DNA of 64,000 nt, from contig CBDCVA010000002.1 in NCBI GenBank assembly GCA_965222935.1, positions 434,001 through 498,000 of the forward strand, given 5' to 3'. Both the position numbers and the translations under genes were made by a program. Shown in pieces: positions 9,883 through 61,209 of the stretch; position 1 is the first letter of the stretch; each line of letters starts with the position of its first letter. The stretch is from CBDCVA01 sp965222935 [NCBI: Candidatus Latescibacterota bacterium] (lineage in GTDB: Bacteria; Latescibacterota; CBDCVA01). A model generated the notes under the pieces. The model was given only the letters and a program-made list of their open reading frames with translations. It was not told where the DNA came from and ran no database searches.

Positions 9883-10914
9883 TTGACCATGGTATATCGC
9901 ATCGTCATCACCGACCACTGGTGGACGAGCCTCACGCCGGAGCGCGAGGTGGCGAGTGTCCTGGGTAGCGTTGAAATCACCGACGCTGGCTGTGAGACGA
10001 CCGACGAGGTCAAAGCCGCCATCGTCGGTGCCGACGCCATCATTCACACCACGCACACGTTTACCGCCCTCACCCTGGACGCCGCGACGCACTGCCGTGT
10101 CATTACCCGCTACGGCACGGGTATGGACACGGTAGACATCCCCGCCGCGACCGAGCGCGGGATCGCCGTCTGCAACGTGGTGGACTATTGCACGTCGGAG
10201 GTCACAGAACAGGCCCTATCACTCTTGTTCGCCGCCGCCCGAAAGGTGGTCGAAGGCGAGCATCGCATCCGCGCCGGTGACTGGCGGGAAGCACGCGGGG
10301 CGCACCTTCTGGGTGAGGAGCAGACCGTCCGCGCGATAGCGCCCATCCACAGAATGGAGGGACGCACGCTGGGCCTGCGCGGCTTCGGCCACATCGGCCA
10401 GGCGATGGCGCGCAAGAGCCACGGCCTGGGGTTTCGCGTCATCGCTCACAGCCCCTCGGTCCCATCCCACATCTTCGATGAACTGGGCGTCGAGCGTGTC
10501 AGCTTCGAGGACCTCTTAGCACAATCCGATTTCCTCTCCGTCCACATCCCCCTCACCGACCGAACGCAAAACCTCTTCGACGAAGCCGCTTTCCGACGGA
10601 TGAAGCCCTCCGCCATTTTCATCAACACGGGTCGCGGCGGCGTGGTCGATGGCGCGGCGCTCGCGCGAGCGCTGCATGAGGGCTGGATCGCGGCCGCGGG
10701 ACTGGACGTTATGGCCGTCGAGCCCATCCCACCCGACGACCCGCTGCTCAGCGCCCCCAACCTCGTTCTGAGCCCGCACATCGGCTACTACAGCGAAGAA
10801 GCTCTCGCCGAGCTCCAGCGCCGCACCATGCAGAACGTCGTGGACGTGCTCGGGGGCCGCCGCCCCGAGACGCTCCTCAACCCCGAAGTCGCCGACAGCC
10901 TGGGCCTGCGCTGA
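9883..10914 (+). CDS. D-2-hydroxyacid dehydrogenase (CtBP/SerA-like)
   Basis: A 343-aa NAD-dependent D-isomer-specific 2-hydroxyacid dehydrogenase. The NAD loop LRGFGHIGQAMA, catalytic Arg in NTGRGGVVD, Glu in DVMAVEP and His in SPHIGYYSE are all present. VVDYCTSEVTEQALSLL is characteristic of the C-terminal-binding-protein-like branch. TTG at 9883 and ATG at 9889 are both plausible starts. The substrate is undetermined; no serine-biosynthesis partner is adjacent, so a phosphoglycerate dehydrogenase role is not supported. Confidence 0.9.
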   Translation: MTMVYRIVITDHWWTSLTPEREVASVLGSVEITDAGCETTDEVKAAIVGADAIIHTTHTFTALTLDAATHCRVITRYGTGMDTVDIPAATERGIAVCNVVDYCTSEVTEQALSLLFAAARKVVEGEHRIRAGDWREARGAHLLGEEQTVRAIAPIHRMEGRTLGLRGFGHIGQAMARKSHGLGFRVIAHSPSVPSHIFDELGVERVSFEDLLAQSDFLSVHIPLTDRTQNLFDEAAFRRMKPSAIFINTGRGGVVDGAALARALHEGWIAAAGLDVMAVEPIPPDDPLLSAPNLVLSPHIGYYSEEALAELQRRTMQNVVDVLGGRRPETLLNPEVADSLGLR

Positions 10915-10995
10915 TTGCGCAGAGCGCGTCACCGGAGCGGCCGTGGGAACCTCGTCAGAGCCTGCCACGTTCTCCAGAACGTGAGTTCTCACGCT

Positions 10996-11748
10996 ATGGC
11001 ATCTTCTCAGCCCCCCCGGCGGCGGCGCGGTCAGCTCACCCCCCTTTCGACCATGCCACGGTCGTTCCGCGATGGCTGGATCGGGCTTGCGGCGTCCATC
11101 GTGGTGCACCTAGCGCTCTTCGTGACCTGGCGGTCGCACGTGATCCCCGATCCGCGCTTCGAGCCCGACCGTACCTGGCAGTCCCTCAGGGTGACCTTCA
11201 TCCAACGCGCGCCGCGACCGGACGACGTCTACATCCCCGAGCAAAGAGTGGAGGTGCCTCGGACCCGCCGTCCCACGCCGCGCCGCTTGCGGTCTCTCCA
11301 CCGCCTGACCCCGGACTTCGAGGTCGTCAAGCGAGAGAAGAAGGCGCTCCAAGAAAGGCTGAACCTGGAGGGCCTCGCTGGCAAGCTCGTCCTCCAGTCG
11401 GGTAGCGACGATGTGCTCTTGGGGGACGACCTCTTCGAACCGACCATCCTCGGCGACTGGTTGCGCCGTCGGCGTTCGCAGCGCTCGGGCGAGGTGGTGG
11501 TCTGCTCCCTGCGCATCTACAGCAATGGTACCTGGACCTATCGAGAACGTGCACGGCGCCTGACGCTCCGGGAACGCGGGGTTTACAGACGCTTCGGCGA
11601 CACGCTCTTCGTCCACACCCGCGATTCGACCGAACCCGGCCGCATCGGTCTCGCCGGACGCGTACGCTACGAGGTCGAAGGGACCCGGCTGGAGCTCAAG
11701 CCTCTGCCTTCGGGAAGTGTGGATTTCGCCTGGTTGCGGTTGGAGTGA
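10996..11748 (+). CDS. TonB-like membrane-anchored protein, unknown function
   Basis: A protein of about 250 aa with a basic N-terminus, one TM segment (WIGLAASIVVHLALFVTW, about residues 25-42), then a Pro/Arg-rich stretch (VPRTRRPTPRRLR) and a compact C-terminal domain. The HLALFVTW-type anchor plus basic linker resembles TonB/TolA-like proteins, but no ExbB/ExbD and no canonical TonB C-terminus are present. The C-terminal 80 residues look beta-rich. The ATG at 10996 is chosen because it gives a typical anchor; an upstream in-frame start is possible. Confidence 0.6.
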   Translation: MASSQPPRRRRGQLTPLSTMPRSFRDGWIGLAASIVVHLALFVTWRSHVIPDPRFEPDRTWQSLRVTFIQRAPRPDDVYIPEQRVEVPRTRRPTPRRLRSLHRLTPDFEVVKREKKALQERLNLEGLAGKLVLQSGSDDVLLGDDLFEPTILGDWLRRRRSQRSGEVVVCSLRIYSNGTWTYRERARRLTLRERGVYRRFGDTLFVHTRDSTEPGRIGLAGRVRYEVEGTRLELKPLPSGSVDFAWLRLE

Positions 11749-27948: not shown

Positions 27949-28983
27949 CTAGGCGTAGCGCGCCTCCCACGCGTCGCTTTCGGGCGTGAAATACGCGATG
28001 CGAGCCTTCTTGTACTCTTTGGATGACCAGAGCGCAGCATGCTCGGTGACCCTCGTCTTTCCGGCGATGGCCCCCAGCAGCGCCTCGCAATCCCCCTTGG
28101 TCCGACCGTGGACCATGGTGAAGATATTGTAGGGCCAGTCGGGGTAGGTCGGGCGCTGGTAGCAATGGCTGACGCCGCGAAAGCCCGACATCTGCTCGCC
28201 CACCGCCTCAATGCAGTCGGACGGCACACGCCATACGCCCATGACGTTCGACTTGAAACCCGCCGCCCGATGATGCAGTACCGCCGCGAACCGCCGCATC
28301 CGTCGCTGCTCGCCAAATCGCTCCGCCGCCTCCAGCAGCGTCTCAACCGGCGCACCCAGGACCTCCGCTGACCGGTCGAAGGGCCGCGGTACGATCTTGA
28401 GGTCTTTCTGAAGCTCACGGATGTAGCCGATCTCCTTGCTGGAGGGCACGCCATTGTCCACGCGGTCGGCATCGCTGAAGCTCTTCTCGTCCGTCCGGTT
28501 GGTGGGCGAACCGTCTCCGCTCATGTCCAGTTGCATGTTGATCTTGAAGAGCTTGAGCGTAGGCAAGAGCCTCAGAGCGTCCACCTCCGCGAGTTCGCCC
28601 AGGAGCTCGGCCGTCCGCTCCAGCCCCAGTACACTCGTCGGCCCGACGGCGATGGTGAACCAGAGGTTGAAGTCGTGCGTGCGCCGGTAGTTGTGCGAGA
28701 CGCCCGGATGCTCGTTGATCGCCCTAGCGGCCTCATTCAGCCGCTTGGGGACCACGCGCGCGGCCACGAGGCTCGAACGATAACCCAAGCTCGGACCGTC
28801 GAAAATGGCCGCGATCTGACGCACGACGCCACCCTCCTTCAGTCGGCGGATGCGGCGCAGGACTTCGCCCTCATTCAGCCCAACCTGCGCACCAAGTGCA
28901 GCGAAGGGCGCGGGCACGAGCGGCACCTCACGCTGTAGCGCGTTGAGCAGCTTCCGGTCGGTCGCGTCGAGCTCAGACCACAT
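27949..28983 (-). CDS. fused siroheme decarboxylase (AhbA-AhbB-like)
   Basis: A 344-aa protein made of two AsnC/Lrp-like modules, each with a winged helix and a ferredoxin-like domain, as in the AhbA/AhbB and NirD/L/G/H family that decarboxylates siroheme to 12,18-didecarboxysiroheme. Module 1 has LLNALQREVPLVPAPFAALG and PGVSHNYRRTHDFNLWFTI. Module 2 has LQKDLKIVPRPFDRSAE and GVSHCYQRPTYPDWPYNIFT. A Ser/Asp/Thr-rich linker of about 25 residues joins them. In most organisms the two are separate subunits. The product could feed heme d1 or the alternative Ahb heme b pathway. GAGAGG precedes the ATG. Confidence 0.88.
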   Translation of the reverse strand: MWSELDATDRKLLNALQREVPLVPAPFAALGAQVGLNEGEVLRRIRRLKEGGVVRQIAAIFDGPSLGYRSSLVAARVVPKRLNEAARAINEHPGVSHNYRRTHDFNLWFTIAVGPTSVLGLERTAELLGELAEVDALRLLPTLKLFKINMQLDMSGDGSPTNRTDEKSFSDADRVDNGVPSSKEIGYIRELQKDLKIVPRPFDRSAEVLGAPVETLLEAAERFGEQRRMRRFAAVLHHRAAGFKSNVMGVWRVPSDCIEAVGEQMSGFRGVSHCYQRPTYPDWPYNIFTMVHGRTKGDCEALLGAIAGKTRVTEHAALWSSKEYKKARIAYFTPESDAWEARYA

Positions 28984-29161
28984 GCTTACCTCTCACCGTT
29001 CAGTGCAACGTGCATCCGTAACGCTGCCAGACCACGCCTTTCCGATCATGACCATCGCCATTGTGGGCTTGCCGAAGGACAGGCTTTATCGAATTGCAGG
29101 TCATGGCCCGCACCCGATCCACCACGAAGCATCTCGCCCGGAGACGCCATCCTCAAGGTCC

Positions 29162-29641
29162 TCAGCCGCCGCCGATGACTTCGTATTCGGGCAAGGGCTG
29201 GCCCTCGGCGATGGCTTCCAGCGTGTCGTCGACGACCTCGGGCAACTCATCGGTCCCGCCAACGTACGAGCGAAGGACTTTACCATCCGCATCGGTGAAG
29301 ACCAGTGTGGGCACGCGGTCGATGGAGTAGGCCTTGGTGACAGCACGATCACTGTCGAGTGCGACGGGAAAATCCAGCTTAACCTCGCGGGCGTACTCGG
29401 CCACTTGCTCGGCCGACCAGCGCGTGGCGATGGCCAACACCTCGACGGGCCCCTTGGCGTGATTGCGATGAACGTCCCCGAACTGGGGCATCTCCTCCGC
29501 GCAGACGGGTCAGCCGGGGTTGAAGAAGATGTAGCACGCCGGCCGCCCCACGAGCGCCGAGGCCCAGGTCGTTCCCTCAGCGTTCACTAATGGCAGTGTG
29601 AACTCGGGCGCCTGGGCGCCGACATCAGGGGCGTTGGGCAT
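29162..29641 (-). CDS. redoxin/TlpA-like protein with in-frame TGA at active-site Cys; candidate selenoprotein
   Basis: Translation from the ATG at 29641 is open to the TGA at 29162-29164 except for one TGA at 29510-29512, codon 44. The context is YIFFNPG-TGA-PVCAEEMPQF, so the stop sits where TlpA/redoxin proteins have the first Cys of their CxxC. The N-terminal half (GAQAPEFTLPLVNAEGTTW) and the C-terminal half (DRVPTLVFTDADGKVLRSY, with the cis-Pro VP) belong to one thioredoxin fold of 159 aa. A UxxC redox centre fits known prokaryotic selenoproteins. AAGGAAGGTGAG precedes the ATG. Ordinary callers would split it at the second half (ATG at 29491). No sel genes are in the window. Confidence 0.78.
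29473..29512 (-). promoter_or_regulatory. candidate bacterial SECIS element after in-frame TGA
   Basis: On the mRNA, CCCC and GGGG arms enclose an AGUUC loop 22-34 nt after the TGA. The stem may extend through bulges by U-A and G-C pairs. Bacterial SECIS elements lie within about 16-37 nt of the UGA and carry a GU in the apical loop; both hold here. The stem is short and I have not folded it computationally. Confidence 0.45.
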
Positions 29642-29826
29642 AAAGCTCACCTTCCTTCTATACCACGAGCCGCAAACTTCGCCAGGACGCTATAGGCGGG
29701 TCCACGCGCCCGTGCCCTCAGGCCGTGACGATCCTCTTACCATCCGCACGCCTGCACATGGTAGGTGCAACACCAAAGACTGTCAAGCCGACGACGGCGC
29801 GGGATGATGTGGGATCCAGAAGCAAC

Positions 29827-29842
29827 GCCGCCGACTGGCGGC
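29827..29842 (-). terminator. GC hairpin downstream of ferredoxin-like gene
   Basis: A perfect 6-bp stem GCCGCC/GGCGGC with a GACT loop follows the end of the ferredoxin-like gene on the minus strand. No real U-tract follows, so it may be a weak terminator or attenuation hairpin ahead of the redoxin gene. Confidence 0.3.
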
Positions 29843-29884
29843 GAGTCGCAGTCGCCGATCGAGGTCTCGACCTGAGTTCGGACC

Positions 29885-30673
29885 CTAGACCTGTCCGCAC
29901 CTCTCGCGGATCACCCGGTGCGGTCCCTGAGGCATGGTGTCTTTGCCCGGCCCCACGGTGATCTCGATCCGCCCGACGCCCTTGATGTTCGTGCAGCTCT
30001 GAGCTGCATTGGGGAGCAGGAAGCGCAAGGGGCCGCCTTTGCCGCGCGGCAGAGGTCCCCCATCCAGCTTGTAAACGAGGAGGCCCCGCTCAGCCAGATC
30101 CGTCAGCGGCACGCTCGCCGCGAAGACGCCTTCGGCGGCGTGGACCGTGGCGTGCGTCGCCTCCGGGTTGGGTCCTGCGGCGTCGAGTAGCGCCCCCGCT
30201 TTGACCGCCGCGCCTTGACGATCGGGGATGATCTCGCCGACCTCGGCGATCTGCGCCTCCTCCGGCAGGTGATCGAGCACGCTATAGGTGTAGAGGCGCG
30301 TCTTCCCGACTGAGCCATCCACCACCAGCCGCAGCGGCAGTTCATCCTCGGGGGGAGGCGTCTCTGCCAGCAGGAGCCGCTCGACGATCTGGCCGCCGAT
30401 CAGATGCTTCTCGACGATCTCGTCCACATCCTCGGAGCGGACGCCACCGTACCAGACTGCCTCGGGGTAGACGACGATTGTGGGGCCGTACTCGCAGTAA
30501 TCCAGGCAGCCAGCGATGTTCGCGCGCACGCGGCCCTTTAGACCGCGCTTGCTCACCGCCAGCTTCAGCGCCTCGCGAACCTCGACGGAGCCTTTCTCGG
30601 AGCAGCAACCGCGGGGATGCCCCCCCGGACGCACGTTGGTGCAGACGAAGATGTGGCGTTCGTAGCCCGGCAT
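29885..30673 (-). CDS. [2Fe-2S] thioredoxin-like ferredoxin fused to molybdopterin-oxidoreductase-like domain
   Basis: A 262-aa protein. Residues about 1-95 match the NuoE-like/thioredoxin-fold ferredoxins (RHIFVCTNVRPGGHPRGCC and NIAGCLDYCEYGPTIVVYP), with Cys positioned to bind one [2Fe-2S] cluster. Residues about 160-250 resemble the sulfite-oxidase-type molybdopterin-binding fold (SVPLTDLAERGLLVYKLDGG, PLRFLLPNAAQSC). The C-terminal domain is short and lacks most of a catalytic Moco site, so cofactor binding is uncertain. GAGGG precedes the ATG. It lies upstream of the redoxin and siroheme decarboxylase genes on the same strand. Confidence 0.75.
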   Translation of the reverse strand: MPGYERHIFVCTNVRPGGHPRGCCSEKGSVEVREALKLAVSKRGLKGRVRANIAGCLDYCEYGPTIVVYPEAVWYGGVRSEDVDEIVEKHLIGGQIVERLLLAETPPPEDELPLRLVVDGSVGKTRLYTYSVLDHLPEEAQIAEVGEIIPDRQGAAVKAGALLDAAGPNPEATHATVHAAEGVFAASVPLTDLAERGLLVYKLDGGPLPRGKGGPLRFLLPNAAQSCTNIKGVGRIEITVGPGKDTMPQGPHRVIRERCGQV

Positions 30674-30795
30674 TAGGGACCCTCTTTCTCTAAGGTAACG
30701 TGATCCTCAATATGCGGCGCAAGCCCCGGTAGTCAAGCGGTAAGAGTGCCCTTCGCCTTGCCAACCGCCGCTCCTACCGCTACACTTATCTTGCC

Positions 30796-46166: not shown

Positions 46167-47210
46167 TCACTCGGCAGCGCGGACCTCCTCGCCCCGATCG
46201 GCCGAAACGTAGAGCGCGTCCATGATCCATTGAACGTCGAGCATCTGGCTAAAATGCACGGTCGGCACACGCCCTTCGAGTACGGATTGACAGAAATCCT
46301 GGAGGCTTGCTCTGAAAGCGCTTTCGGGGCCAGGCGGGAGCTCGGGGGTAACGTCCACGATGCGCGCGCCGTCCTCCAGTTCGATGCGGAAAGGATTGCG
46401 GGTTGCGACGCCCCAATCGCCCAGGATCACGACGGCACCTGGGGCCGTGTTCGGATGCGCCATCCAGTTGCTCGTGACCGTCATGGTAGACCCATCGGCG
46501 AAATGGACCAGACCGACGTTAAAATCCTCGATATCGCACTCTTCCAGCGCTCCCCGCCAGGTGATGACCGATTTCTTCATCCTGCTCACTTTCTGATAGC
46601 TCGCGCCAGAGGCCCGCACCGGAGTGGGGTTGCCGAGCACCCAGAGGATCGCATCGAGCTGGTGGACCGTCGTATGGAAGAGCGCCCCGCCCCCGGACAG
46701 CGCGCGCTTGTGAAGGGAGCCGTGGCCCGGAATCTCCATGATGTGACCGTGTGAGAGGTTCGTGTGGTAGACGTGCCCCAGCTTTCCAGCCGCCAGGAAA
46801 TCGCGCAGGGCGCGCACGTCAGGCCTGAAACGGTTCTGCAACCCCATCGAGAGGAATTTCCCCGCGCGCTTAGCCGCATCGACCATTCCCTTCGCCTGAC
46901 CGAAATTCATCGCCAGCGGCTTTGAACAAAGCACGTTGGCACCTGCCTCGAAGGCCGCCACCGCCGCGTCATGTACGGCCACGGTCGCTGTGGCTATGCT
47001 GACGACATCCAGCGCGTGGCGCTCTAGCATCTCGCGGTAATCGGCATAGTGGTGCCTGACGCCGAATTCCGCCGCCGTCTCGCGCGCACGCTCGGGGTCT
47101 AGGTCCCCAACGGCGATGATCTCCGCTTCGGGAATTCCGGCGTAACCCTTCACATGCCCATTGCGTCCGAACGCACCACAGCCGATCACACCGACCTTGA
47201 GTCTCTCCAT
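46167..47210 (-). CDS. Gfo/Idh/MocA-family oxidoreductase (copy 1)
   Basis: A 347-aa NAD(P)-dependent sugar or inositol dehydrogenase-type protein: KVGVIGCGAFGRNGHVKGYA (Rossmann loop), the KP motif in LCSKPLAMN, and the catalytic-side His/Asp in HTTVHQLDAILWVLG. MERLKVGVIGCG begins at the ATG at 47210, after GGGG. It is one of four tandem paralogs sharing block order and wording. Substrate unknown; reduction or oxidation of myo-inositol-like or sugar acids is typical. Confidence 0.9.
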   Translation of the reverse strand: MERLKVGVIGCGAFGRNGHVKGYAGIPEAEIIAVGDLDPERARETAAEFGVRHHYADYREMLERHALDVVSIATATVAVHDAAVAAFEAGANVLCSKPLAMNFGQAKGMVDAAKRAGKFLSMGLQNRFRPDVRALRDFLAAGKLGHVYHTNLSHGHIMEIPGHGSLHKRALSGGGALFHTTVHQLDAILWVLGNPTPVRASGASYQKVSRMKKSVITWRGALEECDIEDFNVGLVHFADGSTMTVTSNWMAHPNTAPGAVVILGDWGVATRNPFRIELEDGARIVDVTPELPPGPESAFRASLQDFCQSVLEGRVPTVHFSQMLDVQWIMDALYVSADRGEEVRAAE

Positions 47211-47260
47211 GTTTCCCCTTCCATTAGCGAGAGCCAACGTTGGTCCTCGAACCCTGCCCC

Positions 47261-48601: not shown

Positions 48602-49645
48602 TCACTCCGCCACGGGTATCTCCTCCCCGCGCTCGGCCGCAGCGTAAAGGGCGTCCATGATGCGCTGGACGTCGAGCATCTCGCCGAAGCGCACAACCGG
48701 CAGGCGCTCTTCAAGGATGCTCCGGCAGAAGTCCTCACAGTAGTTGCCGACAGGGCTCTGGGAATCGGCCGAGAGCTGGGGCGTAGCGTCGATGATGCGC
48801 TCGCCATCCTCCAACTCGACGCGCAAAGGCCGCAAGCTCGCGACGCCCCAATCGCCGAGGATCTCGGCGCCGCCTGAGCGCGAGCGGGGGTGGGTCATCC
48901 AGTTGCTCTCGACGGTCATCGTGGAGCCATCGACGAAGTGCACCAGACCTACGTTGAAATCCTCGATGTCGCACGCCTCCAGGGGACCCGACCAGGTGAT
49001 GACGGGCTTCTTCATCTTCCTCACCTTCTGGTAGCTGGCCGCAGAGGCTCGCACGGGCTCGGGGTTGCCGAGCGCCCAGAGCGTAGCGTCGAGGATGTGG
49101 ACCGTCGTATGGAAGAGCACGCCGCCCCCGGCCAGTTCGCGCCTGGTCATGGTGGGCGCACCCGGGATGTTCATCACGTGGCCGTGCCATATCCTCGTGT
49201 GGTAGACGTGGCCCAGCTTCCCGTCCGCGAGGAAACCGCGGAGCGCGCGCACCTCGAGGGAGAAGCGGTTCCCCAACGCCATGGACATGCGCTTCCCTGA
49301 GCGCTTGGCCGTCTCGACCATCTCCTTTGCCTGGGCAAGGTTCATCGCCAGAGGCTTAGAGACCAGCACGTTCGCGCCCGCTTCGAACGCCGCCACCGCG
49401 GCGTCGCGATTGACCGCCGGAGGCAACGCGAGGCTGACGACATCCAGGACGTGGCGTTCGAGCATCTCATGGCTGTCGGTGTAGTAGTGCGGGACGCCGA
49501 AGGCCGCCGCCGCCTCGCGCGCCCGCTGGGGGTCGATGTCCGCGACGGCGACGAGATCCGCCTCAGGTGTCTCGGCATAGCCCCTTAGATGCCCACTGCG
49601 CCCATGGGCGCCGCAGCCGATCACGCCTACTTTGAGCCGATCCAT
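48602..49645 (-). CDS. Gfo/Idh/MocA-family oxidoreductase (copy 3)
   Basis: A 347-aa paralog: KVGVIGCGAHGRSGHLRGYA, KP in LVSKPLAMN, and HTTVHILDATLWALG. It is closest to copy 4 in its central MNIPGAPT/HSYYR-type segment. The ATG at 49645 matches the family start (MDRLKVG), 108 nt downstream of an upstream in-frame ATG. Confidence 0.9.
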   Translation of the reverse strand: MDRLKVGVIGCGAHGRSGHLRGYAETPEADLVAVADIDPQRAREAAAAFGVPHYYTDSHEMLERHVLDVVSLALPPAVNRDAAVAAFEAGANVLVSKPLAMNLAQAKEMVETAKRSGKRMSMALGNRFSLEVRALRGFLADGKLGHVYHTRIWHGHVMNIPGAPTMTRRELAGGGVLFHTTVHILDATLWALGNPEPVRASAASYQKVRKMKKPVITWSGPLEACDIEDFNVGLVHFVDGSTMTVESNWMTHPRSRSGGAEILGDWGVASLRPLRVELEDGERIIDATPQLSADSQSPVGNYCEDFCRSILEERLPVVRFGEMLDVQRIMDALYAAAERGEEIPVAE

Positions 49646-49697
49646 GTCTTCCCCTTCCACTGGCGACAGCAAACGCTCCGGCGCCCGGCCATCGCCT

Positions 49698-50744
49698 TCA
49701 GTCGGCGACGGCGACCTCCTCGCCGAGGGCAGCCGCCGCATAGAGCGCATCAATCACGCGATGGAGGTCCAGCATCTCACTGAAACGGATGAGAGGCAAC
49801 CGTCCATCGAGGACGGAACGACAGAGGTCCGCTATGCTGTCGCCGTAAGCGTCCGGTGGATCGGGCGGGATCTGGGGCGTGGCGTCGATGATGCGCTCGC
49901 CGTCTTCCAGTTCGACACGCAAGGGACTCCGGCTCGCTACGCCCCAGTCTCCGAGAATCTCCGCCCCGCTCCCCCGCGCGCTTGGGTGCTTGAGCCAGTT
50001 GCTCTCCACGGTCATGGTGGAGCCATCGGTGAAGTGTACCAGACCGATGTTGAAATCCTCGATATCGCACGCCTCGACGCCGCCCGGCCAGGCCACTGGG
50101 GGACTGTGCATCTTCCGCAGCTTGTGGTAGCTCGCGGCTGAGACCCTGACGGGCCTGGGGTTTCCGAGTACCCACAAGATCGCGTCGAGCATGTGAATCG
50201 TCGTGCTCATCAGTGCGCCGCCGCCAGCCCGGTCACGCCTGTAGTAGCTATGGTGTCCCGGTATATTCATGACGTGACCGTGCCAGATCCTTGAGTGATA
50301 GACGTGGCCCAGGGTGCCGGCACGTAAGACTTCACGCAAGGCGGGCACCTCGCTTCTGAAGCGATTCGGCAAAGCCACCGAGAGGAGCTTGCCCGCGCGC
50401 ACCGCAGCCTCCACGACCTCCCTCGCCTCGGCGAGGTTCATCGCCAGGGGCTTGGCAGCCATCACGTGCGCACCCGCATCGAAGGCCGCCAGCGCCGCAT
50501 CGCGTCGTCCGGCGGCAGGCGTTGCGACGCTGACCACGTCCAGCGCGTGGCGCTCAAGCATCTCGCGGTAGTCGGTGTAATGGTGCGAGCCGTCAAATTC
50601 CGCCGCCATCGCTCGCGATTCTTCGGCATCTTCGTCCGCGATGGCGACGACCTCGGCCTCGGGAATCGCCGCGTACGCTTGCAGATGAGCTCTAGGGTAG
50701 CCCCCGCCATTATGCCCGATCACACCGACTCTGAGTTGGTCCAT
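49698..50744 (-). CDS. Gfo/Idh/MocA-family oxidoreductase (copy 4)
   Basis: A 348-aa paralog with a slightly altered nucleotide loop (GVIGHNGGGYPRAHLQAYA), KP in MAAKPLAMN and STTIHMLDAILWVLG. It is the most upstream member of the minus-strand array. MDQLRVGVIG supports the ATG at 50744; the longer N-terminus (MRGSRP...) lacks family similarity. Confidence 0.9.
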   Translation of the reverse strand: MDQLRVGVIGHNGGGYPRAHLQAYAAIPEAEVVAIADEDAEESRAMAAEFDGSHHYTDYREMLERHALDVVSVATPAAGRRDAALAAFDAGAHVMAAKPLAMNLAEAREVVEAAVRAGKLLSVALPNRFRSEVPALREVLRAGTLGHVYHSRIWHGHVMNIPGHHSYYRRDRAGGGALMSTTIHMLDAILWVLGNPRPVRVSAASYHKLRKMHSPPVAWPGGVEACDIEDFNIGLVHFTDGSTMTVESNWLKHPSARGSGAEILGDWGVASRSPLRVELEDGERIIDATPQIPPDPPDAYGDSIADLCRSVLDGRLPLIRFSEMLDLHRVIDALYAAAALGEEVAVAD

Positions 50745-50983
50745 GTTCCTCCCACCGGTGACAGCCAACACGTGAGGGCTCGTCCACTGACCGGACGGCC
50801 TCGATCCGCGCATCTTTCGGCGCAGTCCTGATGCGACTCACAGGAATCTAAGCGCACAGGCCCGATCGGCAAGGGCGCTGTCGAAGGGGACGGGAGATCG
50901 GCCAGGCGACGCGCATCTCCGCCACCGGCGCGCTATGTTGCGTGAGACCGCGGCTCTGGGGCCAACCTTGAAAAACGGTCGTC

Positions 50984-57222: not shown

Positions 57223-60200
57223 CTATGCCAGGACAGCGGCTTCGCGACTGGACGAAGTCTGGATCTGGATGAGCCCTTCGCCGACGTGCTCCTGCTGAGG
57301 AGCGCGCTCCATCGAAAGTCCCAGTTGCGCCATCAGTTCGCGCTTTCTCGCTTCAAGCTTCTCCTGAAGATCGCCCTCCAGCGCATTCATGCGCCCCATA
57401 TCCTCCTGGTAGCGCTTGAGGAAGTAGTCCATCGTCTCCACACGGATCTTGATCGAACCGGTGGGTTTGTTCTCATCAATGTCGTGGAACGTGAAGTACG
57501 GCGTCCCGCTGTACTCCACCGTCGACTCCACCACGCTGTACATGGGGGCGTCGTGCCCGCACTTGAAGCTGGAGAGGTCGATGGCGACGAGGTTCGGATG
57601 ACGCGCGACGTACTTCGCCGCCCACACCTTTTGCGAGGAGTTTTCGCTATAGCAGTTCTTCCACACGTCGGTGACGTCCGTCCCGCTCACGATGTCGCCG
57701 CGACGGACGTCCTCGCCGAACAGCGGCTCCAGGCTCTCACCGTCGATGGGCAGCGACGCGATCGTAAAGACCGGGTACCCGAGCTTCTGGACCTGCTCGA
57801 GGATCTCGTGGTTCAGGCCAGGATCGTTATGATAGGGCCTTCCCAGGAGCACTACGCCGACCCGGTTCTCCCGCTCGAGCTGCTCGAGCACCTCGCGAGC
57901 GGGCACCCGCTGCAAGTCGTGGTGGAACTTGCGCATGGCTTCCCAGCCCTGCTCGATCGCTCGTTCGTTCTCGGCAGGCGTCACGCCGAGCCATTTGCTG
58001 AAGAAGTTGTAGCACTCGCGCTCGAACAGGCTCAACTCATTCATGTGGAAGGGCGGATCGTAGAACGTGATCCCGCGCTCGGCGAAGATGTCGCTCTCCT
58101 TCGTGAAAGCCGCTTTGCACACCGCGGGCGTAGCCTGGACCGTCGGGCACGCATCGTGCTTGAGCGCGTTGTCCAGCCACGACGGGAGGTTAATCACCGC
58201 GGGGAACAAGATGACGTCGATCCCTCTCTTCTTGAAGACCAGGTTGTGGATGTGCGCCACCGCCACCTTGGACGGGAAACACTGGTCGATGGAGCCGCGG
58301 CGCGACCCTTCCTTCCACATCTGCTCTTCAGTGTAGTCGCTCCACGCGATGTGATTGGGGCGAACCCCGAGGCTCTCCATGTACGCGCTCCACAACGGGG
58401 CGGTCGAGTACATGTTGAGCACGCGCGGCATCCCGACCTTCACCGTCTCTCGGTAGCGCATGATCTCACGGCGCGACCGCAGCCGGCCCCGGCTGAGCCG
58501 GTCCACGATCGGGTGGATCCTACTATCGGGCACAGCACTCTTCTTCACCGGAGTCTTCGGGGTGGGACGCGAAGCCTTCTTCGCTTGCGGCTTACGGTCA
58601 AAGGTGGCCCGAGCGTCGCCATTTTGCGGAGATGATGCCTTCTCGCTCACCGCCGGCGGAGCAGCCTTGGCCTTTGGTTTGGCTCCGTTGCCGTTGGCAG
58701 GGGCATTGCCATTGCCATTGAAGGCCGCCCTGGCTTCCTCGACCTTCTTAGTCGCCTCCTCGAACGACAGGCCCCCGTCCATCAGCTTCTGCACTTTTGC
58801 CGGCACCCGCTTCGGCTTGGCGCCGTTCCCACCAGCCGCCGCACCGTTGTTGTTATTCGCCGCAGGAAGCGCGGACGCTGCTACGTCTTTGGCGACAGCT
58901 TCGGCGGCGGTATCCTCCTCGAGCCGCCCTCGGCCGACCAGCCACTCGTTAAACTTCCCCAGCCAACCCTCGTCGGCCTCGTAAACTTTCTGGGGGTTGA
59001 AGCTGCGGAAGGCGGCTTTGGCCGCGACCTCGACGAAGTTGGGATTGGCCTTCTTGATCTGCTGGATCTCAGCCTTGATCCCCTTCATGTCATCGACGTT
59101 TTCGACGGTGCCCTTCTCGCACGTGGCGATGATGAACCGCCGGCTGCCGGCGCTGGTCTCGGTGTCGATAAACGTCCTCAAACACTTGTTTTTGCAGAAA
59201 TGACAGCGCGTGGATTCGTCGCGTTTGGCGCTGAAAGTCAGCTCCTGTGTCGCCTCGAGGCCGAGGTACTCGCTTTTCCCCTCGCGCTGCTTGACGACAC
59301 GGATCGCATCCAGCGCGGCGCCGATCGCGCCCGACTCACCGCAGTAGTCGTGTACGGTGATGTTGGCGCCCGGCACCTTCTCGCTGATGAAGTCGTACTG
59401 CGACTTTACGGCGGCGAGGTTGTGCTGCGTGCCGCCCTGGAGGATGAAGTTGGTCCCGAATTTCTGGAGGTTGGGCTCCTGAACGACGTACAGCCAGATG
59501 TTCTTCGGCAGGACCTTTGCCAGGCCCGCCATGATCTCCTCGGCCGACCAGCCCAGTTGCTGGAAGTTGACGATGTCGCTCTCCATGAACACCGCGCAGC
59601 CGTAGCTGAAGATCGGCAGCCGCTCCGCCTTGAAGGCGATGTCGGCGAACTCGGTGACATCGTAGCCGAACCTTCCTCCCGTGCTCTGCAGGAAGTATCC
59701 GTTGCCCGCCGAGCATTGCGTGTTCAGCCTGAAGTCTTTGACCTGGCGGTTGTGGAGGATGATGACCTTGATGTCCTGTCCGCCGACGTCCACGATGACG
59801 TCCACGTCTTCGTAATAGTGCAGAGCGCTCATCGTATGGGCGACGGTCTCCACGAGCGCGACATCGGCACCCAGGGAGTCCTTCAGGATGTCTTTGGCAT
59901 AACCCGTCGTGCCCAGGCCCTGGACACTCAGGGTCGCGCCCTGCTCCTCCACCTGAGTGCGAAGTTCGGCCAGGACCTCCTTGGTGTCCTCGAGCGGGTT
60001 GCCCTTGGAGAGCTGGTACGCCTTCGTCAGAAGCGTGCCGTTTTCGTCCATCAGGACGCACTTTGTCGAGGTCGAGCCCCCGTCCACGCCGATGAAGCCC
60101 TTCACCTCCTGGCCCGGTTGGAACTTCACCGGCTCGAAGGGCTTCTTGGTGAACTTCTCGATGAACTCCTGGAGCTCCTCCTCGTTCTTGCTCAGGCCCG

Positions 60201-61209
60201 AGTCGCCCGTCGCCTCGCGCAGCTTAGCGCGACCGACCTTGATGTACTCTTCCAGCGGTGCCTTGCCCTCGTAGCGCCCGATGTGCGCATCCTCTTCGAG
60301 GCCGTAAAGGACCGAGCCGATGGCTGCATAGTACTGGGCGTTGTCGGGAACGATGATGAGGTCCTGCGGATCGACGCCTTCGGGCAGAGCGACCTTCCGC
60401 TCCTCCCACACCTTGGGGATGTTGTGCTTCCAGGCATCCTGCATGGCGGGGATGAAGGTGCACGGCCCGCCCAGAAGGATGACCAGGGGCCGGAGCGTGT
60501 TGCCGCGCGTGAGTACGCTCAGGTTCTGCTGGACGATGGCTTCGAAGAGCGAGGCCATCAGCTCCTGCGAGGGCACGCCCTGCTTCTGGAGGCCGTTGAT
60601 GTCGGTCTCCGCAAAGACGCCGCACTTGCCGGCGACCGGGTGCAGCTTGACGCCAAAATAGTTCAGCGCCTGAAGCTGCTCGCCCGTGAGTTTGAGCTTG
60701 GCGTTGATCTTATCGATGACGGCGCCGGTGCCCCCCGCGCACTTGTCGTTCATACTGGGGAGCTTGCGCTTTTGGCCGCTCTTGGGATCCTCGACCCAGA
60801 TGATGATCTTGGCGTCCTGTCCGCCCAGCTCGACCACCGAACCAGCATCGGGGTAAGCGTTCTCCACCGCGAGGCTGACGGCGTTTACCTCCTGGACGAA
60901 CTTGGCGCCGATGTAGTCGGCGATCGCCCCGCCGCCCGATCCGGTGATGAAGATGCGAACCTTCTCTTTGGGAAACGGGAACTCCGCCTCAATGCGGTCG
61001 AGAAACTCGTTACACTTCTCGGGCTGTTTGGTCTCGTGCCGCTGGTAGTCGCTCCAGAGGATCTCCTTGCTCTTCGGGTCCATGACAACTGCCTTGACGG
61101 TCGTGGATCCCACGTCCATCCCGATGACGACGCCTTCGGGATAGGCGTCCACGGCGTTCCTAGAGGACTCGGCGCCCTCTGGAGCAGCTAGGTCCGGGCC
61201 TTTTATCAT
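57223..61209 (-). CDS. giant BadF/BadG-type CoA-dehydratase activase with DUF2229 domain
   Basis: A 1328-aa protein. Two ASKHA ATPase modules (GVVIGMDVGSTTVKAVVMDP near the start, KGFIGVDGGSTSTKCVLMDE at about residue 370) each carry GGQD (VVELGGQDAKIIIW and VVDVGGQDIKVIIL). The second contains NTQCSAGNGYFLQ, the Cys that bridges the activator [4Fe-4S] cluster. A CxxC...C segment (CHFCKNKCLRTF) lies near 660. An Asn/Ala/Lys-rich linker of about 130 residues (NNNNGAAAGGNGAKPKR) joins a DUF2229 domain (KVGMPRVLNMYSTAPLWSAYM). It should use ATP to drive one-electron transfer for a radical dehydratase or related enzyme. Confidence 0.87.
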   Translation of the reverse strand: MIKGPDLAAPEGAESSRNAVDAYPEGVVIGMDVGSTTVKAVVMDPKSKEILWSDYQRHETKQPEKCNEFLDRIEAEFPFPKEKVRIFITGSGGGAIADYIGAKFVQEVNAVSLAVENAYPDAGSVVELGGQDAKIIIWVEDPKSGQKRKLPSMNDKCAGGTGAVIDKINAKLKLTGEQLQALNYFGVKLHPVAGKCGVFAETDINGLQKQGVPSQELMASLFEAIVQQNLSVLTRGNTLRPLVILLGGPCTFIPAMQDAWKHNIPKVWEERKVALPEGVDPQDLIIVPDNAQYYAAIGSVLYGLEEDAHIGRYEGKAPLEEYIKVGRAKLREATGDSGLSKNEEELQEFIEKFTKKPFEPVKFQPGQEVKGFIGVDGGSTSTKCVLMDENGTLLTKAYQLSKGNPLEDTKEVLAELRTQVEEQGATLSVQGLGTTGYAKDILKDSLGADVALVETVAHTMSALHYYEDVDVIVDVGGQDIKVIILHNRQVKDFRLNTQCSAGNGYFLQSTGGRFGYDVTEFADIAFKAERLPIFSYGCAVFMESDIVNFQQLGWSAEEIMAGLAKVLPKNIWLYVVQEPNLQKFGTNFILQGGTQHNLAAVKSQYDFISEKVPGANITVHDYCGESGAIGAALDAIRVVKQREGKSEYLGLEATQELTFSAKRDESTRCHFCKNKCLRTFIDTETSAGSRRFIIATCEKGTVENVDDMKGIKAEIQQIKKANPNFVEVAAKAAFRSFNPQKVYEADEGWLGKFNEWLVGRGRLEEDTAAEAVAKDVAASALPAANNNNGAAAGGNGAKPKRVPAKVQKLMDGGLSFEEATKKVEEARAAFNGNGNAPANGNGAKPKAKAAPPAVSEKASSPQNGDARATFDRKPQAKKASRPTPKTPVKKSAVPDSRIHPIVDRLSRGRLRSRREIMRYRETVKVGMPRVLNMYSTAPLWSAYMESLGVRPNHIAWSDYTEEQMWKEGSRRGSIDQCFPSKVAVAHIHNLVFKKRGIDVILFPAVINLPSWLDNALKHDACPTVQATPAVCKAAFTKESDIFAERGITFYDPPFHMNELSLFERECYNFFSKWLGVTPAENERAIEQGWEAMRKFHHDLQRVPAREVLEQLERENRVGVVLLGRPYHNDPGLNHEILEQVQKLGYPVFTIASLPIDGESLEPLFGEDVRRGDIVSGTDVTDVWKNCYSENSSQKVWAAKYVARHPNLVAIDLSSFKCGHDAPMYSVVESTVEYSGTPYFTFHDIDENKPTGSIKIRVETMDYFLKRYQEDMGRMNALEGDLQEKLEARKRELMAQLGLSMERAPQQEHVGEGLIQIQTSSSREAAVLA

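What the first reader, a model, noticed from the sequence alone, without database searches (positions are those of the whole stretch)
29162..29641. Candidate selenocysteine redoxin (UxxC) missed by standard gene calling
Seen directly: a 159-codon frame is open apart from one TGA at codon 44, and the sequence around it is FFNPG-TGA-PVCAEEMPQF. The TlpA/redoxin family has Cys there. Both flanks translate in the same frame as one thioredoxin fold, with a good Shine-Dalgarno at the ATG. Established: prokaryotic thioredoxin-like selenoproteins use UxxC. Inferred: UGA is decoded as Sec. A standard annotation would report only a 109-aa truncated protein starting at 29491.
Basis: partly seen in the sequence, partly recalled or inferred. 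Interest (0 to 1): 0.92.

Follow-up and report, generated by a model that had tools for sequence, protein, structure and literature searches.

The report
Redoxin gene with active-site TGA
A small bacterial redox gene has one in-frame TGA codon exactly where nearly all the relatives we looked at have their catalytic cysteine, so it probably encodes a selenium-containing enzyme of an already known kind, although the host's selenocysteine machinery could not be checked.

Summary
On the minus strand a frame runs from ATG at 29641 to a stop at 29164-29162, broken once, by TGA at 29512-29510. The piece after the TGA is a Redoxin domain (PF08534, 4.6e-12). The piece before it resembles the matching part of relatives beyond all 200 shuffles. 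The TGA fills the first-cysteine slot of a CxxC motif (TGA-Pro-Val-Cys). That slot is cysteine in 77 of 78 places scored. The exception has TGA one codon later and resembles a known UGC-type selenoprotein family. Both pieces have normal codon usage, and TGA ends 8 of 19 window genes, which speaks against a changed genetic code. A SECIS-like hairpin is weak evidence: 157 of 1000 random TGA sites have one too. No genome is held for the window, so the selenocysteine machinery could not be looked for, and no close orthologue was found. Best reading (about 0.75): a selenocysteine redoxin. Its kind is already catalogued ('Redoxin family protein, PF08534, UxxC', PMC13188914). Main rival: a nonsense mutation or base error that happened to hit this codon.

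The parts
29650..29657 (-). Likely ribosome-binding site, 8 bases before the ATG at 29641
   Evidence: read directly from the 30 bases before the ATG
29513..29641 (-). Piece N: 43 codons from ATG to the codon before the TGA; N-terminal part of a redoxin domain (APEFTLP ... FFNPG); no signal peptide apparent by eye
29510..29512 (-). In-frame TGA at the slot of the first Cys of CxxC (candidate selenocysteine codon)
29471..29492 (-). SECIS-like hairpin: 8-bp stem with one bulge, 5-nt apical loop AGUUC at 29484-29480, 25 nt after the TGA; weak, near chance level
29165..29509 (-). Piece C: 115 codons, Redoxin/AhpC-TSA/ResA-like, begins Pro-Val-Cys, holds a V-P-T stretch
29162..29164 (-). Terminal stop codon, TGA
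27949..28983 (-). Downstream neighbour on the same strand: fused siroheme decarboxylase AhbA-AhbB
29885..30673 (-). Upstream neighbour on the same strand: 2Fe-2S ferredoxin-like part fused to an Oxidored_molyb domain

Best explanation
A 159-codon redoxin gene whose TGA at 29512-29510 is read as selenocysteine, giving a probably cytosolic UxxC thiol-disulfide oxidoreductase (or peroxiredoxin-like reductase). Inferred mechanism: SelB with charged tRNA-Sec inserts selenocysteine at the UGA, helped by a hairpin just downstream. The selenolate attacks a disulfide or peroxide, and the Cys three residues on releases it by way of a selenenylsulfide. Shown: fold family, position of the TGA, near-invariance of Cys at that slot in the relatives sampled, normal codon usage on both sides. 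Inferred: Sec decoding, role of the hairpin, chemistry, cytosolic place.
For: Piece C matches Redoxin 4.6e-12 and AhpC-TSA 5.2e-11, ResA subfamily 1.9e-14, and ResA structures, best 3.8e-9. Piece N scores mean 30.7 against 34 relatives upstream of the slot; 200 shuffles 19.1, sd 1.2, maximum 23.6; its APxF lies 33 residues before the slot, in relatives 32 (10 times) or 33 (3 times). Slot is Cys in 77 of 78 places scored out of 80 loci. Codon-usage log-odds 0.121 (N) and 0.269 (C), within the 0.071-0.300 of the 19 window genes on which the measure was trained. TGA ends 8 of 19 genes, against a code change. No other split gene stood out: 5 adjacent same-frame pairs were listed, of which I read 2 as consecutive genes and 3 as a gene followed by a frame without a Pfam match. 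A fold relative (L095) carries an in-frame TGA at its active site and its downstream piece matches NF041054 WAxxUGC. A hairpin within the published bSECIS limits is present.
Against: The host's selA/selB/selC/selD could not be looked for; the window itself holds no tRNA gene and no Rfam match at gathering score. None of 78 places scored has TGA at this exact slot. Hairpin energy is ordinary (z -0.02 and -0.34), the full stem forms in the 43-nt fold but not in the 50- or 60-nt folds, and 157 of 1000 random TGA sites pass the same test. The genome search printed no identity above 41%, so no selection test was possible.
Confidence: 0.75

Rival explanations
1. A recent nonsense mutation: an ordinary CxxC redoxin whose first Cys codon became TGA, now a young pseudogene with no other damage seen.
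For: One base change would do: the Cys codons TGC and TGT seen at this slot in relatives are each one base from TGA. No host Sec machinery is shown.
Against: 47 single-base routes to a stop exist at the other 158 codons, so with equal rates a random nonsense change lands on this slot about once in 48. The part after the TGA keeps its domain match and normal codon usage.
Confidence: 0.12
2. A sequencing or assembly base error at the Cys codon.
For: The window belongs to no held genome and may be a metagenome record; no reads can be checked.
Against: No other clearly split gene stood out in the window; same rough 1 in 48 argument.
Confidence: 0.08
3. TGA is a true stop and the 109-aa ORF from ATG 29491 is made as a shortened protein without the N-terminal part and without the Pro-Val-Cys.
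For: An ATG lies 7 codons after the TGA, with GGAGGAG before it.
Against: The GGAGGAG touches the ATG, too close for a usual ribosome-binding site (my judgement). The product would lack the redox motif.
Confidence: 0.05

Closest known systems
Redoxin family selenoprotein (PF08534, UxxC), catalogued in PMC13188914 and PMC9312934 (passages seen)
   Same: Same Pfam family and same UxxC layout
   Different: The listed example proteins were not fetched, so closeness in sequence is untested
Prx-like thiol:disulfide oxidoreductase selenoprotein (PF00578, UxxC/UxxU)
   Same: Piece C also matches PF00578 (5.2e-11); UxxC
   Different: Not compared directly
ResA / TlpA-type thiol-disulfide oxidoreductases
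   Same: Closest named families and structures
   Different: In the 66 relatives the slot is Cys in 65, preceded by WxxW in 53 and followed by PPC in 39; here FFNPG precedes the TGA and PVC follows. No export signal is seen by eye
ResA-like WAxxUGC family (NF041054)
   Same: Same fold, in-frame TGA in the active site (L095)
   Different: Motif UGC, not UxxC; piece C scores 21.1 bits against a cut-off of 300

Membership tests
Redoxin / AhpC-TSA superfamily | Match above the curated family score | tested here: met
   PF08534 46.4 bits (cut-off 26.6), PF00578 43 (26), piece C alone
Redoxin / AhpC-TSA superfamily | N-terminal part of the domain present at the right distance | tested here: met
   Piece N against 34 relatives beyond 200 of 200 shuffles; APxF spacing 33. 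Pfam finds no match to piece N alone
Prokaryotic UxxC selenoproteins | In-frame TGA aligned with a conserved Cys (Cys/Sec pair) | tested here: met
   Cys in 77 of 78 places scored
Prokaryotic UxxC selenoproteins | bSECIS hairpin downstream of UGA | tested here: inconclusive
   Limits met in the 43-nt fold only; 157 of 1000 random TGA sites also pass
Prokaryotic UxxC selenoproteins | Host encodes SelA, SelB, SelD, tRNA-Sec | not testable with these tools
   No whole genome held
Prokaryotic UxxC selenoproteins | TGA at the same slot in homologues of other organisms | tested here: not met
   None among 78 places scored, all distant relatives; one TGA one codon on (L095). A supporting filter in the literature, not strictly a definition
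WAxxUGC ResA-like selenoproteins (NF041054) | Score above family cut-off | tested here: not met
   21.1 bits, cut-off 300; a piece alone could hardly reach a full-length cut-off
ResA proper (NF002854) | Score above family cut-off | tested here: not met
   53.9 bits, cut-off 170, piece alone

The most novel reading that the evidence does not exclude
A selenoprotein subgroup of its own: a cytosolic redoxin with FFNPG-[TGA]-PVC in place of the usual WxxW-CPPC surroundings, in an unplaced, deep-branching high-GC bacterium, perhaps co-expressed with siroheme decarboxylase and a ferredoxin-molybdopterin fusion.
Probability: 0.25. Interest if true: 0.4.

Novelty: new member of a known kind. Interest (0 to 1): 0.3.

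Why it matters
If read as selenocysteine, it adds one UxxC redoxin to a catalogued group and marks an unplaced bacterial lineage as a likely selenium user. Ordinary gene calling would cut such a gene short. It does not change what is known of how selenocysteine is used.

Tried and rejected
Close orthologues: the search for related loci with piece C in genome contigs (298 stretches, none confirmed) and viral contigs (20 stretches, none); the two neighbours in viral contigs (none confirmed); DNA 28500-30700 in plasmids (no match). Plasmid tblastn with piece C gave 18 records, all below 60% identity; 11 of the 15 listed are annotated ResA.

Host placement: Obg (a capped list of the best 80) and a quick tree of 26 rows left the window without supported kin (best identity 55% in the tree); no phylum is claimed.

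A degenerate DNA pattern that keeps the TGA hit one viral contig (L120). Its pattern frame is full of stops and piece C finds nothing there: chance. Rfam at a loose limit gave only SNORD66 on the other strand, E 2.6, 15 bits against 32, taken as chance. Stops that the genome search counted inside hits of L085, L113 and L081 lie at the ends of their frames, and L118's lies inside its frame; none is at the slot.

Papers: a search for the name WAxxUGC listed 5 papers, none with the word. PMC13188914: abstract, outline, section 5 and found passages. PMC9312934 and PMC12013277: found passages. Others: listings only. No claim is made that this gene is absent from print.

Full report
What is there. 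On the minus strand, ATG at 29641 (with AAGGAAGG 8 bases before it) opens a frame that ends at the TGA at 29164-29162. It holds one further stop, TGA at 29512-29510. That makes piece N (43 codons from the ATG; P0002 starts 3 codons earlier, at GTG 29650) and piece C (115 codons, P0001). Piece C starts Pro-Val-Cys.

What it is. Piece C alone matches Redoxin PF08534 (4.6e-12, 46.4 bits, cut-off 26.6) and AhpC-TSA PF00578 (5.2e-11), the NCBIfam ResA subfamily (1.9e-14; 53.9 bits, under its cut-off of 170) and StoA, and ResA structures (best 3.8e-9). Piece N alone matches no Pfam family, and in the PDB only weak rows appear: best an archaeal peroxiredoxin (E 0.12, residues 8-44 on chain 5-42), then two CD200 receptor chains (E 0.18 and 1.2) that are surely chance. 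Held against the part of relatives just before their CxxC it scores well above chance: 34 of the 66 relatives had at least 40 open codons in the DNA held, mean score 30.7, 200 shuffles 19.1, sd 1.2, highest 23.6. The APxF motif is 33 residues from the slot, in relatives 32 (10) or 33 (3). The two pieces are therefore most likely the two sides of one domain.

The slot. 80 loci were taken (L081-L119, L121-L161). With piece C, 66 gave a local tblastn hit, and the codon before the match is TGC 40, TGT 25, TGG 1. The 14 without a tblastn hit were dropped there; 12 of them were later read from the places that the genome search had given, and all 12 are Cys (9 TGC, 3 TGT). Two were not counted: L083, where the contig ends before the slot, and L122, which is L097 again. 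So 77 of 78 are Cys. The TGG case, L095, has TGA as the next codon, followed by Gly-Cys; its downstream piece matches NF041054 'WAxxUGC' at 5.4e-30 (104.9 bits, under the cut-off of 300). The window's TGA thus stands where the catalytic Cys is nearly invariant in this sample. The sample is of distant relatives (at most 39.6% identity): loci that the searches returned, one plasmid record, and 40 places picked from the upper part's list.

Not a new code, no visible decay. Of 19 window genes with a family match, 8 end in TGA, 8 in TAG, 3 in TAA. Codon-usage log-odds are 0.121 for N and 0.269 for C, against 0.071-0.300 for those genes, which also trained the measure; shifted frames are negative and the best opposite-strand frame is 0.077. 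A scan for same-frame neighbours split by one stop listed five pairs. Two are consecutive genes; in the other three the frame after the stop has no Pfam match, and at 9883-10914 the gene before it is a complete 2-hydroxyacid dehydrogenase match. The scan did not list the redoxin itself, presumably because its upstream stop-to-stop piece includes non-coding bases. From the 158 sense codons there are 47 single-base routes to a stop, 6 of them to TGA, so with equal rates a random nonsense change would land on this slot about once in 48. That is weaker than '1 in 159 codons' suggests, and it is an argument after the fact.

SECIS. The published bacterial limits are: loop 3-9 nt, stem 4-16 bp, G in the first two loop positions, 16-37 nt from the UGA, energy at most -7.5 (PMC13188914 section 5). 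The 43 nt from the UGA fold with an 8-bp stem, loop AGUUC, spacing 25, -8.9 kcal/mol. In the 50- and 60-nt folds only a 4-bp stem at -5.7 remains. The same test is passed by 157 of 1000 random TGA sites, 25 of 116 Cys codons and 192 of 1000 random codons of the 19 genes; with GU or GG early in the loop by 71, 7 and 97. Fold z-scores are -0.02 and -0.34. The hairpin is compatible with Sec and proves nothing.

Relatives. Piece C in genomes: 11 of 20 and 61 of 82 matched at 1e-3; 5 of 249, 0 of 149, 3 of 68, 3 of 247, 0 of 132 and 0 of 52 at 1e-10; 6 of 299 at 1e-11 (which gave the same six genomes, being draws from one phylum); 1 of 192 and 0 of 198 at 1e-9. The best identity printed was 41%. 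No close orthologue was seen, so neither conservation of the TGA nor selection after it could be tested. The host is unplaced and its genome is not held.

Setting. The gene lies between a ferredoxin-molybdopterin fusion (29885-30673) and an AhbA-AhbB fusion (27949-28983), all on the minus strand, with gaps of 243 and 178 bases. Co-expression is possible but not shown.

Verdict. Most likely a selenocysteine redoxin (0.75), of a kind already in the catalogues: 'Redoxin family protein, PF08534, UxxC' and 'Prx-like thiol:disulfide oxidoreductase, PF00578, UxxC, UxxU' (PMC13188914; PMC9312934). About one fourth of sequenced bacteria used Sec in an early survey (PMC9312934 passage), so the prior is fair. 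A nonsense mutation or base error remains open until the host's machinery or the reads are seen.

Noticed in passing
27949-28983 (-): Siroheme decarboxylase subunits AhbA and AhbB fused in one 344-aa protein, both halves above the family cut-offs.
   Followed up: partly
29885-30673 (-): Ferredoxin-like N-terminal part (NCBIfam matches below cut-off) fused to an Oxidored_molyb C-terminal domain (above cut-off).
   Followed up: partly
L095, minus strand, TGA between 1741-2490 and 1129-1737: A ResA-like gene split by an in-frame TGA before Gly-Cys; the downstream piece matches NF041054 WAxxUGC. Probably a selenoprotein of the known UGC type.
   Followed up: partly
46167-47237, 48602-49753, 49698-50813 (all -): Three Gfo/Idh-type dehydrogenase relatives close together.
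   Followed up: no
57223-61209 (-): 1328-aa protein with acyl-CoA dehydratase activase matches in two stretches.
   Followed up: no
10915-11748 (+): A 277-aa open frame that starts directly after the TGA of a complete 2-hydroxyacid dehydrogenase match (9883-10914), with no Pfam or NCBIfam match of its own.
   Followed up: partly
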